Assembly (NCBI GenBank): GCA_913058295.1
Contig: CAJXRD010000006.1
Span: 1 to 64,000, forward strand
Direction: 5' to 3'
Length of the DNA stretch: 64,000 nt
From: an uncultured Flavobacteriales bacterium
GTDB taxonomy: Bacteria > Bacteroidota > Bacteroidia > Flavobacteriales > Flavobacteriaceae
The notes beneath the pieces are model-generated. The model had not been told where the DNA came from. It searched no databases and worked only from the letters and a program-made list of their open reading frames with translations. How positions within the stretch are numbered: the stretch's first letter is position 1; the number at the start of each line of letters is the position of its first letter. This document shows, one piece after another, positions 47,348 through 54,872 of the stretch. Made by a program: the position numbers and the translations under genes.

Positions 47348-48787
47348 TTAATCATAAGTATAAATTTTCTTAGAAGAGCCATCGTTATATAGTATAATTT
47401 GAATCCCATCATACTTTTCAGAAACCATTCTTCCCAACAAATCATACCTTCCAATTATTTTTTTTGGAGTTGAATTAAGGTTAAAATCACCAAGGCCTAA
47501 AATTCCTTTGCTTATTTTAATTTCATAGGAGTAAACTTGTTCTACATCTGTGAAAATTTCCGGCATAGAAGCAACAATAAAATATACCGAAGTGTCCTCT
47601 GGTGTTAAGTTTAATATAATGGATCCTTCTTGGTCAGAATCCATTTCTAAATCGTGAAAAGAAGTGCCAATTTCTGTGTTCTGAACTATGATTTTCCCTT
47701 GAAAATAGGAAGGGGACCCTTCACTGCCAAACATGTCACTATTCAATTCGAAGGTATAAGATTCGGTACTTTCATTGTTTATTTTATAGGTATTATAAGA
47801 CCAGCCAGTCGTCACCTTGTCATTTTCAGGGCGAACCCATCCGTTACTTCCAGTATTTTGATAAACAGCAATAAATTCGTTGTCATCTAAAGGGTCTGCA
47901 TAATCATCCCATTCCGTTTCAAAACGAGTAATTTGATTTTCGGGTAAAAAATCGAAACTATTGGTCATATGAGCTGCCCAATCTATAAAATGGTTTCTAA
48001 AAACAGAGCCTCCAATTTGATTGAAAAAGTATTCTTGTGGTAAATCGGTTGTCCCAGCATACAATCCATCTGTTATTAAATTATCTGGGACATCAGTTTC
48101 TTCGCTTAAATAATAAAGAAATAAGGCAAGAGCGTATTGATGCACATAACGCTGCCAGTTTTGAGGGTAGCTATCTGGAAAGTTGTCATAACTTAACCAT
48201 AGTGCTACATGTGGAAGTCTAACTAAAGATTCAGCCTCGAGAAAAGCTCTGTCATCGTTTGGATTTTGTATAGCAGAAAACCAGTTTGCAGCAGCTTCAA
48301 TATACCATTGACTATCACCAGAATATTCGAAACCTGGGGATGTCCCGCTATATTGAAACACATGAAAGGTTTCGTGACCTACATTGATCCAGTCATTATG
48401 AGCTCCTATTGGAAGGGTTAAATATGGATAGCCATTGGTGTCTGTACCTTGGCCATTAGCCCATTCATCGGGAAAAATATCTCCAGATTGATGTAAGTAT
48501 ACATTGTAATAATAACCATCTGTAGGATTTGGAGGGTCTTGCATCGCAAGGTCGTTTAAACAAACATCTCTATAATTATTCATATAACTGAGCAATAGTT
48601 CGGCTTCTGCTTGTCGGTCCCAGTTATTATCCCACCAAACAATATAGATCCCAGAGGTTACCGTGTCGCATTCTGTTAAATTGCCATATTCACTATTGAT
48701 AGTGTATTGAGAGTGCGCCTTTGTGTATAAAAATAAGGTAATTAATAAAGAGAATACTATTCTAAATGGATACTTATTATAAACCAT
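47348..48787 (-). CDS. Secreted HExxH metalloprotease-like protein (DUF6055-like)
   Basis: A 479-aa secreted protein. The signal (TLFLYTKAHSQ) is followed by a domain with GHETFHVFQYSG (about 160-171), a zinc-binding HExxH, and a downstream WYIEAAANWFSA whose glutamate lies 21 residues after the second histidine, as in gluzincin-type sites. Overall it resembles DUF6055 proteins. The C-terminal 45 residues (KKIIGRYDLLGRMVSEKYDGIQIILYNDGSSKKIYTYD) look like a type A T9SS tail in reduced form. ATG 48787 is used. Target unknown; protease activity predicted from the motif. Confidence 0.78.
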   Translation of the reverse strand: MVYNKYPFRIVFSLLITLFLYTKAHSQYTINSEYGNLTECDTVTSGIYIVWWDNNWDRQAEAELLLSYMNNYRDVCLNDLAMQDPPNPTDGYYYNVYLHQSGDIFPDEWANGQGTDTNGYPYLTLPIGAHNDWINVGHETFHVFQYSGTSPGFEYSGDSQWYIEAAANWFSAIQNPNDDRAFLEAESLVRLPHVALWLSYDNFPDSYPQNWQRYVHQYALALFLYYLSEETDVPDNLITDGLYAGTTDLPQEYFFNQIGGSVFRNHFIDWAAHMTNSFDFLPENQITRFETEWDDYADPLDDNEFIAVYQNTGSNGWVRPENDKVTTGWSYNTYKINNESTESYTFELNSDMFGSEGSPSYFQGKIIVQNTEIGTSFHDLEMDSDQEGSIILNLTPEDTSVYFIVASMPEIFTDVEQVYSYEIKISKGILGLGDFNLNSTPKKIIGRYDLLGRMVSEKYDGIQIILYNDGSSKKIYTYD

Positions 48788-48919
48788 AAATGAATTTTTT
48801 ACTAAAATAAAACAAATATGTGAAAGCACTTTAGGTTATGAATTTTGATGCCCTCAGAATGAATAAAAGTATTTATATAATCTGAATTATGTGGTACTTG
48901 TATTTAAGAATTAGAGTGC

Positions 48920-51025
48920 TTAACTTATATAGTTCCAAATATTTCGATACTTAGATAATTGAATATAAGTGCTTTTTATGGGAAGATTAACTGGTGATGA
49001 TAGTGAAGGGTCGCTTTTTAATAATTGTGAGGCATAACTTCTTGCTAGCTTTAAAATTTCGTGATCTTTAATAATATCTGCAATTCTAAGGTTTAAAACG
49101 CCACTTTGTTGTGTCCCCATAAGATCTCCAGGACCTCTAAGTCTAAGATCTACTTCTGCAATTTCAAAACCATCACTTGTTTTTACCATCGTTTTTAAGC
49201 GGGCTTGAGCATTTTCAGATAGTTTGTGACTGGTCATTAAAATACAAAAGCTTTGTTCAGCACCTCTACCAACGCGTCCACGCAATTGGTGTAATTGTGA
49301 AAGACCAAATCGTTCCGCACTTTCTATTACCATAACACTAGCATTTGGAATATTTACTCCAACTTCAATAACAGTTGTTGCAATCATGATCTGAGTTTCC
49401 CCTTTGATAAAACGATTCATTTCAAATTCTTTGTCTTTGGGTTTCATTTTTCCATGAACTATAGAAATTTGATAATTTGGTTTCTGAAATTCTCTAGAGA
49501 TACTTTCGTAGCCATCCATCAAATCTTTATAATCTAAAGCCTCAGATTCTTGAATTAATGGGTACACAATATAGACCTGTCTACCCTTTAAAATTTCATC
49601 TTTTAAAAAGCGAAAAACACGTAGTCTATTTGCATCAAATCTATGTACAGTTTTGATCTCTTTTCTACCTGGTGGAAGTTCGTCAATAATCGAAATATCT
49701 AGGTCTCCATAAACGCTCATAGCGAGGGTTCTTGGAATGGGTGTTGCAGTCATCACTAAAACGTGTGGAGGGAACTTATTTTTAAGCCATAATTTACTGC
49801 GTTGCGCAACTCCAAATCGATGTTGTTCGTCTATAATAGCAAGGCCTAAATTCTTGAATTTCACCTTATCTTCGAGCAGAGCATGAGTGCCAATTAGGAT
49901 GTCAATTTCGCCACTTTCTAGTTTTTCATGGATAATTCTTCTGTCTGAAGCTTTAGTTGAACCAGTTAGTATGTATGTACTGAGTTTTAGATTATTACAT
50001 AATTCTAATAAACTATTATAGTGCTGGACTGACAAAATTTCAGTCGGAGCCATTAAGCAAGTTTGAAAACCATTGTCAATAGCTATTAACATTGACATTA
50101 ACGCGACTATAGTTTTTCCAGAACCTACATCCCCTTGCAATAATCGATTCATTTGCGCTTTACTCCCTAAGTCGTTTCTAATTTCTTTGATAACTCGTTT
50201 TTGCGCATTGGTCAATTCGAAAGGTAAATGCTCTTTAAAAAAAGTATTAAAATACTCCCCTACTTTTGGAAATGGATAGCCTTTTATTTTTGATTTATGG
50301 AGATGATTTTTACGAATTAATTGTAGCTGAATGTAAAATAATTCTTCAAATTTTAGGCGGTATTCTGCCCTTGCTAAAAGGTCTTGATTTTGGGGAAAAT
50401 GAACATTTAAAAGAGCCTCTTTTTTGGAGCTTAATTTAAGGGTTTCTAAAAGGGGTTTTGAGAGGGTTTCTGTAATGTTATTTTTTGACTCTAAAAATAG
50501 TTGTTGCATCAAGGTATTTATAACTCGATTTGTAATTCCTCTTGCTGCTAATTTTTCTGTAGAAGGATAAACAGGTTGCATAACTGGACGTAAACTTTTT
50601 TCATAATCGCTTAACAATTCTATCTCTGGATGAGGCATTGAAAACAATCCATTAAACCAATTCGTCTTTCCGAAGATTACATAGGCTTCATTCAATTTTA
50701 AATTTTCTCGAATCCATTTATGACCACGAAACCAAATCAGTTCCATTTTTCCAGAATCATCTATAAAGCTTGCTACCAAACGTTTTCCCCTTTTTTGCTC
50801 AACGTTTTTAATATGAGTAATCTTGCCAATTATTTGTACTTCAGCATTAGTTTTTTGAAGTTGTGATATTTTGTAAAATTGAGTGCGATCTAAATATCGA
50901 TTTGGAAAAAGGTTAAGCAAATCTTGAAAAGTATGAATTCCTAACTCTTTTTTAAGTAAATCAGCCCTATTTGGGCCTACACCCTTAAGGTAGTCAATGG
51001 GAGTTTGAAAAAAAGCAGGAGTCAT
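48920..51025 (-). CDS. recG: ATP-dependent DNA helicase RecG
   Basis: A 701-aa helicase that remodels stalled replication forks and Holliday junctions. N-terminal wedge/OB domain (TPIDYLKGVGPNRADLLKKELG; about 55-145), Walker A LLQGDVGSGKTIVALM (about 299), DEQHRFG box (about 398), motif III TATPIPRTLAM, and a final QLRGRVGRGAEQS (motif VI) with a C-terminal TRG-like segment. All are intact and the length is normal. Confidence 0.95.
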   Translation of the reverse strand: MTPAFFQTPIDYLKGVGPNRADLLKKELGIHTFQDLLNLFPNRYLDRTQFYKISQLQKTNAEVQIIGKITHIKNVEQKRGKRLVASFIDDSGKMELIWFRGHKWIRENLKLNEAYVIFGKTNWFNGLFSMPHPEIELLSDYEKSLRPVMQPVYPSTEKLAARGITNRVINTLMQQLFLESKNNITETLSKPLLETLKLSSKKEALLNVHFPQNQDLLARAEYRLKFEELFYIQLQLIRKNHLHKSKIKGYPFPKVGEYFNTFFKEHLPFELTNAQKRVIKEIRNDLGSKAQMNRLLQGDVGSGKTIVALMSMLIAIDNGFQTCLMAPTEILSVQHYNSLLELCNNLKLSTYILTGSTKASDRRIIHEKLESGEIDILIGTHALLEDKVKFKNLGLAIIDEQHRFGVAQRSKLWLKNKFPPHVLVMTATPIPRTLAMSVYGDLDISIIDELPPGRKEIKTVHRFDANRLRVFRFLKDEILKGRQVYIVYPLIQESEALDYKDLMDGYESISREFQKPNYQISIVHGKMKPKDKEFEMNRFIKGETQIMIATTVIEVGVNIPNASVMVIESAERFGLSQLHQLRGRVGRGAEQSFCILMTSHKLSENAQARLKTMVKTSDGFEIAEVDLRLRGPGDLMGTQQSGVLNLRIADIIKDHEILKLARSYASQLLKSDPSLSSPVNLPIKSTYIQLSKYRNIWNYIS

Positions 51026-51115: not shown

Positions 51116-52696
51116 ATGAAAACATTTTACATGCTATTCCTTCTATTTTTTAGCCTAACTATTAATGCTAAAACTAACTTAAATAATACAATTCCAACTT
51201 TAACTACCCAGTTATCTGAGGAATATCCCTTAGAGATGCAAGAGTTAATAGCATACCAAATTTATATTAATGCTACTGTAGAGGATCCAGATACCATGGA
51301 GGAAGTTACATTAAATATTAATGGAGAAACTTTTAATGCTATAGAAAATAATGGGTACTATTATTATTTATGGACCCCTTCTTCTTTTGGAACACATGAA
51401 ATAATAATCACAGCAATAGCTGCCAGTGGTGATGAAACTTCACTTACCAGGAATATTGAAGTAACCAATGCGATTAGTTCGCAAACAGTAGAAACCTTGC
51501 AAGATGTTGTTATAGAGTTTAATGGAGATAATAGTAGATGGTATTATGGAACTTATACTTTACCTCAGTTTGTAGGTGCTTATGATTCAATTAATGCATT
51601 TTTAGAAGTTGAGTGTCCTGATGTAAATGGAGGTTGCGATGATTGGGATCGATGGGCACATATTGATGTGAAAGCCCCAGACGGAAATTGGATACAGCTT
51701 ATACGTTATATAACGCCTTATGGTGTTGGATGTAATCATGAGCTTGATGTAACAGATTATATGTCTTTATTACAAGGAGAAATAGAGTTTAGAGTATTCA
51801 TTGATACTTGGGGAACAGGAGGATGGCAATTAACTCTTAATTTAGATTATAATCAAGGTTCTCCAGAGTATAATTATAGTGGAGTAGTTGAGGTTTGGGA
51901 TGATGCTTATGATTTTGGAAACCCTGCTGATTTACAACCTGTAGAATCTTATACAGCCGATATTTCAGAATTAGTTGATGAATCTTATTTAAGGTTATCA
52001 AATACTGGGCATGGCTGGGGCGAAAATAATACAAGTAATGCTGCAGAATTTTTTAATGCATATCATTATATAGACATTAATGATACTGAAGTTTATACAC
52101 AACATTTATTTAATTTATGTAACCCTAACCCAGATAATTGTATTGATCAGCTAGGAACTTGGTTTTATAATAGAGCAGGTTGGTGTCCCGGAGCAATTTC
52201 GCCACCAGATATTTTTGACCTAACAAGTTATGCAGGTTCAAATTTTGATTTGGACTACCGTTTTCACCCTACCTATCAAGATTTTTGCCATCCAAATAAT
52301 TCAGAATGTGTGTCAGGTGCAACTTGCCCTGATTGTAACGATGGGTATAATCCAGTATATTTTGTAGATGGACATATTATTAATAAAAGTGATAACCCTA
52401 TAGTTTATGGAAATATTTTAGGAACTGAAGTCATTAATAACGATGAAGTGTACGATATTTCTGTATATCCAAATCCTTCTAATGGAGAATTTTCGATTTT
52501 TACTAAAAACCTTGAAGGTAAAACCAGATTAAGTGTTCATACTATAGAGGGAAGACAAGTAAAGGTTTATTATTTTAATTCAAATGAAGAATTAACAAAT
52601 TATAAGTTTAACCTTAAAGGTTTATCAAGTGGGATATACTTTATAAATTTAGAAAATGCTTATGGCACTGGTGCTAAAAAAATTATTTTAGACTAG
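51116..52696 (+). CDS. PNGase F-like T9SS-secreted protein
   Basis: A 526-aa secreted protein: signal peptide (about 1-18), Ig-like domain (about 38-118), a PNGase F-like pair of jelly-roll domains (about 130-420) and a type A T9SS sorting domain (about 450-526, SVYPNPSNGEF...LSSGIYFINL). Compared from memory with Elizabethkingia PNGase F: CDDWDRWA contains D178 (equivalent of catalytic D60), FIDTW has D230 where PNGase F has E118, and NAAEFFNAYH has E311 (equivalent of E206). GTWFYNRAGWCPG matches APDRAGWCPG. Predicted to release N-glycans from glycoproteins, or to bind them; the E-to-D change leaves activity uncertain. Confidence 0.85.
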   Translation: MKTFYMLFLLFFSLTINAKTNLNNTIPTLTTQLSEEYPLEMQELIAYQIYINATVEDPDTMEEVTLNINGETFNAIENNGYYYYLWTPSSFGTHEIIITAIAASGDETSLTRNIEVTNAISSQTVETLQDVVIEFNGDNSRWYYGTYTLPQFVGAYDSINAFLEVECPDVNGGCDDWDRWAHIDVKAPDGNWIQLIRYITPYGVGCNHELDVTDYMSLLQGEIEFRVFIDTWGTGGWQLTLNLDYNQGSPEYNYSGVVEVWDDAYDFGNPADLQPVESYTADISELVDESYLRLSNTGHGWGENNTSNAAEFFNAYHYIDINDTEVYTQHLFNLCNPNPDNCIDQLGTWFYNRAGWCPGAISPPDIFDLTSYAGSNFDLDYRFHPTYQDFCHPNNSECVSGATCPDCNDGYNPVYFVDGHIINKSDNPIVYGNILGTEVINNDEVYDISVYPNPSNGEFSIFTKNLEGKTRLSVHTIEGRQVKVYYFNSNEELTNYKFNLKGLSSGIYFINLENAYGTGAKKIILD

Positions 52697-52718: not shown

Positions 52719-52757
52719 AAAAGGCTATTTTTGAGTATCGGAAATAGCCTTTTTCAT
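52719..52757 (+). terminator. Terminator after the PNGase F-like gene
   Basis: AAAAGGCTATTT/AAATAGCCTTTT stem with an 11-base loop and T-rich tail. It contains the TTG used as start by the ORF track for the M1 peptidase, so that start is wrong. Confidence 0.9.
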
Positions 52758-52787
52758 TTTAACATTTTCATTTTTACAAGTCATAAG

Positions 52788-54872
52788 ATGAAATTATTTG
52801 ATTTTAATATTAAATATTTATGTTTAATTCAATTATTATTAATTGGGTTTTGTGGCATTGCGCAACAAACTGAAATCGTTGATTTTATTAAAACGGATGC
52901 AACTATAGAGCCAATAATTTTAGAAAAAAAGGTTCTTGGTAAGGCTTCTTATACTTTTAAAGTATTAAAAAAATGTGATTCTATATTTTTGGATGGAGTT
53001 GGTATTATTCTTTTAAAAGTAAATTCAAAAAATAGTATTTCTATTTCTTCTGCAAATAAAAAAATCTGGTTGGTTTCAAATTTTAAAGCCAATAAAACGT
53101 ATACCGTTTCCTTTGATTATGAAGCTAGACCAAAGAAGGCATTATATTTTACAGGAGATCAGATTTGGACACAAGGACAAGGAAAATACACATCACATTG
53201 GCTGCCTAGTTTAGACGATATGAATGATAAAATGGAGTTTAACCTTACTATAAATGTTCCAAAGCAAAAAACGGTTATTGCCAATGGTAAATTGCTAAAT
53301 ACAATCGAAAAAGGGGATCTTAATTCCTGGGAGTTTGGAATGGATAGCCCAATGTCAAGTTATTTAGTTGCTTTTGCAGTTGGCGATTTTGAAAAGAAAG
53401 ATTTCATTTCAGCTTCAGGGGTACCAATAGAGTTATATATTAATTCAAAAGATATTGAAAAGATAGAGCCTACTTATCGTAATACGGATATTATTTTCGA
53501 TTTTTTAGAGAAGGAAATAGGAGTTCCATATCCTTGGCAAAATTACAAACAAGTTCCAGTAAGAGATTTTTTATACGCAGGAATGGAGAATACTACAGCA
53601 ACTTTCTTTTCAGAAGCATTTGTTGTTGATTCTATAGGTTATGAAGATCGAAACTATATTAATGTAAATGCGCATGAGTTAGCACATCAATGGTTTGGTA
53701 ACTTAGTTACCGAAACGGAAGGACTTCATCATTGGTTGCATGAGGGCTTTGCCACCTATTATGCACATTTAGCCGAGCGTGAAATTTTTGGAGAAGACTA
53801 TTATTACTGGAAATTATTTCAGTCTGCTGAACAGTTAAATTCACTAAGTAATGAAGGAAAAGGGGAGTCCCTAGTAAACTCCAAGGCTAGTTCATTAACA
53901 TTTTATGAAAAGGGCGCTTGGGCATTGCATATATTAAGTGAAATAGTAGGGGAGAGTAAATTTAAAAAAGCAATAAAAAATTACCTGGAAAGATATCAGT
54001 ATAGAAACGTCACTACCGATGACTTTATTTATGAAGTAGAATTAGTTTATGGAAAAGAATTAACAGATTTTAGAAGGGATTGGCTTCAGCAAAGTGCTTT
54101 TAAATCGGAACAAGCTTTTAATTCACTTATGAAATCTCCATTTATGAAGGAGTATTTTGAAACTTCAGCTTTACTAGAAACACCACTTACGCTAAAGGTT
54201 AAGGAATTGGAAAAGGCACTTACTTTTCCAAACGATTTTTTAGGACAAGAGGCAGTACATCAATTGGAGGGAGAGCCTTTATTGCTTTCGATACCTTTAT
54301 ATAAAAAAGCTTTTCTAAGCAATAATTTGTATGTGAGGCAAGCCATAGCATTAACTCTTACCAAAGTCCCAAAAGAATTAAAGACAGAATATGAGACTTT
54401 GTTAAATGACAAGTCTTATGTTACTCAAGAATTAGCGATGGGTAATTTGTGGGTTTCGTTTCCAGATGAAAAAATTGAGTATTTGGATCTCATGAAAAAT
54501 GCTCAAGGTTTTCAAGATAAAAATATTCGTCAGTTTTGGTTATTTTTGGCTTTGCTTACTGAAAATTATGAACCCTCTAAAAGACCTGAATTCATTGAAG
54601 AGTTAAAACAATATACTTCTCCAGTATATGGGCATAATATTCGTGAGATAGCCTTGGAATACATTAGCTATTTAGATATATGGGATCCAACCACCTTATT
54701 AAACTTATTGGATGCAAGCCAACATCATTATTGGCGTTTTCAAAAGTCGTCAAGGGCTATTTTAAAGGGGGTTTTAGAAAATGACAAGTATCGCAACCAA
54801 TTTATTATGTTGGGAAAGGAGATGGAGCCAAGATCACTTAATTTTTTAAATAGAATGCTTAATGAATATTGA
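52788..54872 (+). CDS. M1 family aminopeptidase
   Basis: A 694-aa exported zinc aminopeptidase. A signal peptide (CLIQLLLIGFCGIAQ) is followed by the M1 N-terminal beta domain, the exopeptidase motif YAGMENTTATFFS (a GxMEN motif, with Gly in place of the usual Ala), and zinc ligands HELAHQWFGNLVT...HEGFATY (HExxH with the third ligand 18 residues on). The C-terminal part is helical. ATG 52788 follows the terminator of the previous gene. It trims peptides in the periplasm. The next gene (patatin) follows in the same direction after 45 bp. Confidence 0.92.
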   Translation: MKLFDFNIKYLCLIQLLLIGFCGIAQQTEIVDFIKTDATIEPIILEKKVLGKASYTFKVLKKCDSIFLDGVGIILLKVNSKNSISISSANKKIWLVSNFKANKTYTVSFDYEARPKKALYFTGDQIWTQGQGKYTSHWLPSLDDMNDKMEFNLTINVPKQKTVIANGKLLNTIEKGDLNSWEFGMDSPMSSYLVAFAVGDFEKKDFISASGVPIELYINSKDIEKIEPTYRNTDIIFDFLEKEIGVPYPWQNYKQVPVRDFLYAGMENTTATFFSEAFVVDSIGYEDRNYINVNAHELAHQWFGNLVTETEGLHHWLHEGFATYYAHLAEREIFGEDYYYWKLFQSAEQLNSLSNEGKGESLVNSKASSLTFYEKGAWALHILSEIVGESKFKKAIKNYLERYQYRNVTTDDFIYEVELVYGKELTDFRRDWLQQSAFKSEQAFNSLMKSPFMKEYFETSALLETPLTLKVKELEKALTFPNDFLGQEAVHQLEGEPLLLSIPLYKKAFLSNNLYVRQAIALTLTKVPKELKTEYETLLNDKSYVTQELAMGNLWVSFPDEKIEYLDLMKNAQGFQDKNIRQFWLFLALLTENYEPSKRPEFIEELKQYTSPVYGHNIREIALEYISYLDIWDPTTLLNLLDASQHHYWRFQKSSRAILKGVLENDKYRNQFIMLGKEMEPRSLNFLNRMLNEY

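What the first reader, a model, noticed from the sequence alone, without database searches (positions are those of the whole stretch)
51116..52696. PNGase F-like T9SS cargo with an E118-to-D change at the catalytic centre
Aligned by eye with Elizabethkingia PNGase F, both jelly-roll halves match (ECP...CDxWDR, ITPY.VG, DVTD..SLL.G, TW, DRAGWCPG). Two of three catalytic acids appear conserved (D60 as D178, E206 as E311), but E118 becomes D230. An N-terminal Ig-like domain and a T9SS tail are added. Known: D60 and E206 mutations abolish activity and E118 is also important. Inference: a functional surface or secreted N-glycan amidase, perhaps with altered activity, or a glycan-binding relative. 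Such enzymes are reported from few flavobacteria.
Basis: partly seen in the sequence, partly recalled or inferred. Interest (0 to 1): 0.6.

Follow-up and report, generated by a model that had tools for sequence, protein, structure and literature searches.

The report
Ordinary secreted PNGase F-type glycan-removing enzyme
This marine flavobacterial gene encodes a secreted relative of PNGase F, the enzyme that clips sugar chains off proteins, and the 'odd' aspartate at its active centre is a common natural alternative already seen in a proven active enzyme, so it is a new member of a known family and not a surprise.

Summary
The 526-aa ORF at 51116-52696 is a PNGase F-family protein (PDB PNGase F at E ~1e-36; model TM 0.85 to the PNGase F crystal) with a signal peptide, an Ig-like N-terminal domain and a T9SS tail. 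D60, E118 and E206 correspond to D178, D230 and E311. The emphasis is wrong: E118-to-D is not unusual. D60 and E206 are invariant in 133 of 133 sampled unique family domains, but position 118 varies (G, D, S, Q, E and others), and Glu is a minority. In the closest clade (82 rows, including the window protein and PNGase F itself) it is Asp in 56 and Glu in 12 within one motif, R-[MV]-[FY]-I-[DE]-T-W-G-T-G-G. The tree needs at least eight D/E switches. The crystallised B. fragilis PNGase (3KS7, BF0811) has the same IDTW motif and is published as active, with PNGase F-like specificity. T9SS-tailed active PNGases were also published in 2025, and the family is common, not rare, in Flavobacteriales. 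Best reading: a functional secreted or cell-surface N-glycan amidase, a new member of a known kind. A second T9SS-tailed paralogue in the same genome, with Gly at position 118, is the more divergent protein.

The parts
51116..52696 (+). PNGase F-family T9SS cargo protein, 526 aa (ATG to stop)
   Evidence: dN/dS 0.05-0.13 against orthologues
51116..51172 (+). N-terminal signal peptide-like stretch (MKTFYMLFLLFFSLTINAK), read by eye
   Evidence: sequence; low model confidence over residues 1-22
51197..51466 (+). Ig-like beta domain (residues 28-117)
   Evidence: Big_7 E 8.9e-4, below cut-off; beta strands, mostly high pLDDT
51479..52390 (+). PNGase F catalytic region, two jelly-roll halves plus a 4-Cys C-terminal extension (residues 122-425)
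51647..51649 (+). D178 = PNGase F D60, in GGCDDWDR
   Evidence: invariant in 133 of 133
51803..51805 (+). D230 = PNGase F E118, in FIDTWGTGG
52046..52048 (+). E311 = PNGase F E206, in NAAEFF
   Evidence: invariant in 133 of 133
52463..52690 (+). T9SS type A C-terminal sorting domain
48920..51025 (-). recG, conserved upstream neighbour
   Evidence: next to the PNGase gene in the close-clade loci examined, Aequorivita, Ulvibacter and MAGs
52731..54872 (+). M1-family aminopeptidase, conserved downstream neighbour
   Evidence: Peptidase_M1 8e-38; synteny

Best explanation
A secreted or cell-surface peptide:N-glycanase of the PNGase F superfamily. After export by Sec and the type IX system, the two-jelly-roll domain binds the chitobiose core of an Asn-linked glycan. 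D178 and E311 carry out hydrolysis of the GlcNAc-Asn amide bond, with D230 in the place of PNGase F E118 contacting the glycan core as in the Bacteroides group 1 enzymes. The products are free glycan and an Asp-containing peptide. Shown here: family, fold, residue correspondence, T9SS tail, purifying selection, conserved locus. Inferred: activity, substrate, and that D230 works like E118. The likely role is to strip eukaryotic (for example algal) glycoproteins so that their peptides can be digested. The genome has no GH92, GH20 or SusD match, so use of the glycan itself has no obvious support.
For: Family and fold: (best 18 PDB matches are all PNGases; TM 0.84-0.85 to 1pnf/1pgs). Active site W177-D178-R179 / D230-x-W232 / H299 / E311 / R353 / W356 matches PNGase F and the B. 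fragilis enzyme 3KS7 (3KS7 reads YIDTW). BF0811 is active with PNGase F-like specificity although group 1 enzymes have Asp at this position (PMC9522356). D/E alternate within one motif, at least 8 switches. Purifying selection. T9SS present: SprA, about 100 tails. Active T9SS-tailed family members known (PMC12381499). recG-PNGase-M1 order conserved. No GH92, GH20 or SusD in own genome.
Against: No assay exists for this clade that I could find. In PNGase F itself E118Q keeps only about 0.1% activity (PMC9102325), so the position matters there. Overall identity to PNGase F is about 29%. The C204-C208 disulphide beside E206 is missing. Distances between D178, D230 and E311 could not be measured: no coordinates were available. 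The genome is a 97.6% complete draft, so absences are weak evidence.
Confidence: 0.85

Rival explanations
1. Active PNGase with altered specificity: the shorter Asp leaves room at C3 of the core GlcNAc, so core alpha-1,3-fucosylated (plant, insect, algal) glycans are accepted or preferred.
For: Six PNGases from diverse parts of the family, including PNGaseL, have an open space at this site, which fits their activity on core alpha-1,3-fucosylated glycans (PMC12381499). Gly at this position makes the fucose pocket in PNGF-II (PMC9522356).
Against: The enzyme with the same IDTW motif, BF0811, does not release plant N-glycans (PMC9522356).
Confidence: 0.25
2. Catalytically dead glycan-binding relative: the fold is kept as a surface lectin or adhesin.
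For: Relatives carry F5/8C or LamG domains and T9SS tails; one close relative, L191, has E206Q and W251G.
Against: D178 and E311 are invariant in 133 of 133 sampled family domains and almost invariant in the close clade; dN/dS about 0.1; the substrate-contact set is kept.
Confidence: 0.07
3. Amidase on a different linkage or substrate, such as glycosylated bacterial surface material, rather than eukaryotic N-glycans.
For: The N-glycan catabolic genes sought were not found in the genome; the locus is not a PUL.
Against: The characterised members cited here (PNGase F, BF0811, PNGaseL, zebrafish Ngly2) are N-glycanases (PMC9522356, PMC12381499, PMC12753239); most of the published family genes examined were orphans too (PMC12381499).
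Confidence: 0.08

Closest known systems
PNGase F (Elizabethkingia meningoseptica; 1PNF/1PGS/3PMS)
   Same: Two-jelly-roll fold, D60/E206/W59/R61/W120/R248/W251, C51-C56 and C231-C252 cysteines
   Different: E118 is D230; W191 is H299; C204-C208 disulphide missing; added Ig-like domain, 4-Cys extension and T9SS tail
B. fragilis group 1 PNGase BF0811 (3KS7)
   Same: IDTW motif with Asp at 118, His at 191, same catalytic pair; published as active (PMC9522356)
   Different: Lys instead of Arg at 61, about 14% identity in the structural alignment, separate major branch of the tree; the 397-aa chain ends with the catalytic domain, so no T9SS tail
PNGaseL and PNGaseDo (PMC12381499)
   Same: PNGase F superfamily with C-terminal T9SS signal, from Bacteroidota
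   Different: Sequences not compared here; other accessory modules and a reported open glycan site
PNGF-II (4R4Z) and group 2 PNGases
   Same: Fold, D60, E206, H at 191
   Different: Gly and Tyr at 118/120, N-terminal bowl domain, core alpha-1,3-fucose specificity
Zebrafish Ngly2 (9LWG)
   Same: PNGase domain; catalytic Asp and Glu shown essential (PMC12753239)
   Different: Lysosomal acid enzyme; KTAPW rather than an IDTW-type motif in the position-118 region; PA and Tx-like domains

Membership tests
PNGase F superfamily (PF09112 + PF09113) | Significant match to both halves | tested here: met
   Both over the gathering score; PDB PNGase F E ~1e-36
PNGase F superfamily (PF09112 + PF09113) | Paired eight-stranded jelly-roll fold | tested here: met
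   AlphaFold pLDDT 81.6; TM 0.85 to 1pgs
PNGase F superfamily (PF09112 + PF09113) | Catalytic D60 and E206 | tested here: met
   D178 and E311
PNGase F superfamily (PF09112 + PF09113) | Acid at position 118 (found in some subgroups only) | tested here: met
   D230; Asp or Glu in 68 of 82 close-clade rows, Gly/Ser/Gln and others elsewhere
PNGase F superfamily (PF09112 + PF09113) | Catalytic acids line one cleft | tested here: inconclusive
   Implied by fold match plus alignment; distances not measured
PNGase F superfamily (PF09112 + PF09113) | Peptide:N-glycanase activity | not testable with these tools
   Needs an assay
T9SS type A cargo | C-terminal sorting domain, Sec signal, T9SS in the genome | tested here: met
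   TIGR04183, N-terminus by eye, SprA
Group 2 (PNGF-II type) PNGase | Gly at 118 and N-terminal bowl domain | tested here: not met
   Asp at 118; Big_7-like N-terminus

The most novel reading that the evidence does not exclude
A widespread T9SS-exported PNGase clade, in which position 118 drifts among D, E, Q and G, serves protein acquisition rather than glycan feeding in Bacteroidota lacking SusD, GH92 and GH20. In the window's genome a D118 enzyme and a G118/no-Trp paralogue (LGTxGNG branch) divide glycan classes between them, the latter being an uncharacterised specificity type.
Probability: 0.2. Interest if true: 0.45.

Novelty: new member of a known kind. Interest (0 to 1): 0.2.

Why it matters
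It also points to a broad, little-assayed clade of secreted PNGases in Bacteroidota, which could supply new glycobiology reagents and suggests how marine flavobacteria might open up glycoproteins.

Tried and rejected
(1) My profile-HMM alignment put Trp at PNGase F W191 in the window clade; L-INS-i showed a two-residue slip, and the true residue is His299, as in most of the family, so I dropped the idea of a 'PNGase F-like Trp clade'. (2) A PADLOC search for a defence role gave nothing. (3) I looked for an N-glycan utilisation locus: neighbours are recG, M1 peptidase and patatin, and there is no GH92, GH20 or SusD match. (4) The PNGF-II characterisation paper is not held; PNGase F mutant activities are cited second-hand from a review. 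(5) Measuring active-site distances failed because no model coordinates were laid out for scripts.

Full report
Observation. The ORF at 51116-52696 (+) is 526 aa. It matches both Pfam halves of peptide-N-glycosidase F above the gathering scores and a T9SS tail (NCBIfam tail). Its best PDB relatives are PNGase F structures at E 3e-36 to 1e-35. The N-terminal domain is Ig-like (Big_7 below cut-off; beta strands at mostly high confidence in the model).

Is E118-to-D special? No. Among 150 unique domain rows, of which 133 cover the sites, D60 and E206 are invariant (133 of 133 each), while position 118 is Gly 50, Asp 26, Ser 16, Gln 13, Glu 8 and a few others (rows are not evenly sampled). A scan of GTDB species genomes for the window's own clade returned 187 relatives, best 80 kept, from Aequorivita, Ulvibacter, Winogradskyella, Jejuia, Lacinutrix, Mangrovimonas, Saprospiraceae, Bacteroidales and others. 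In those rows (82 with the window and PNGase F) the motif R-[MV]-[FY]-I-[DE]-T-W-G-T-G-G has Asp in 56 and Glu in 12; Gly occurs in 11. On the tree at least eight D/E changes are needed by parsimony (a quick tree with several weak forks). The crystallised B. fragilis PNGase 3KS7 reads GIYIDTWTSEGY. Crouch et al. 2022 (PMC9522356) state that the Bacteroides group 1 enzymes have conserved Asp at the E118 position and that BF0811 acts like PNGase F. In PNGase F, E118Q keeps about 0.10% activity and E206Q less than 0.01% (review PMC9102325), so the carboxylate matters there; Asp preserves it.

Fold. AlphaFold with a 55-sequence alignment gives mean pLDDT 81.6, mostly near 90 in the first jelly roll and lower (59-67) in the loops at about 301-310 and 331-360. 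The best 18 PDB matches are all PNGases: 1pgs TM 0.85 (target-normalised), rmsd 2.5. This makes clustering of D178, D230 and E311 likely, but I could not measure distances.

Function and setting. Codon comparison with orthologues gives dN/dS 0.05-0.13 (synonymous sites are near saturation for some pairs). The order recG - PNGase - M1 aminopeptidase, often followed by patatin, is kept in the close-clade loci with enough flank, including Aequorivita and Ulvibacter. The genome encodes SprA and about 100 T9SS tails. It has no match to GH92, GH20 or SusD, so the enzyme may serve protein digestion rather than glycan feeding; this is inference from a 97.6% complete draft.

Comparison with the known. 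Bakshani et al. 2025 (PMC12381499) built a tree of 1,897 PNGaseF sequences, expressed six diverse members, and note that PNGaseL and PNGaseDo carry T9SS signals. A secreted T9SS-tailed PNGase is therefore known. PF09113 matches occur in 180 of 398 sampled Flavobacteriales genomes and 61 of 396 sampled across the phylum. The window protein is a new member of a known kind.

What is more unusual lies elsewhere in the genome: a second T9SS-tailed PNGase F-like protein (G000:C7, L104) with a LamG domain at its N-terminus and LGTSGNG in place of IDTWGTGG, part of a branch with Gly (one Val) at 118 that includes Saprospiraceae, Chitinophagales and Mangrovimonas. Its D60 and E206 equivalents are kept.

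Noticed in passing
G000:C7:17080-18528 (L104, L162): Second PNGase F-like T9SS protein in the same genome, LamG + Ig-like + PNGase + tail, with Gly at position 118 and no Trp at 120 (LGTSGNG); part of a wider branch.
   Followed up: partly
L196 (Winogradskyella undariae), L197 (Lacinutrix): Natural Gln at position 118 with Tyr at 120 (IQTYGTGG); the corresponding PNGase F change E118Q nearly abolishes activity.
   Followed up: no
L191 (Flavobacteriaceae MAG): Close relative with E206-to-Q and W251-to-G, so possibly inactive; its sister L192 is normal. Could be real decay or an assembly error.
   Followed up: no
L135, L136, L137, L139, L142, L145, L148, L150, L151, L163 and others: Group of about 1150-1310 aa PNGase F-like proteins with a several-hundred-residue insert inside the PNGase domain between the D60 part and the rest; in L151 the insert looks LamG-like by eye.
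   Followed up: no
window 52286-52339 and relatives (A2 columns about 271-288): Clade-specific extension after the second jelly roll with four invariant cysteines, CHPNN-x-x-C-x-x-G-x-T-C-x-x-C; a similar stretch occurs in distant L153.
   Followed up: no
L174 versus window: N-terminal domains differ among syntenic orthologues: an F5/8C domain in L174, none in the window protein or the Ulvibacter orthologue (L182).
   Followed up: partly
window 47348-48829 (-): 493-aa secreted-looking protein with HETFH (HExxH metallopeptidase-like) motif and no Pfam match.
   Followed up: no
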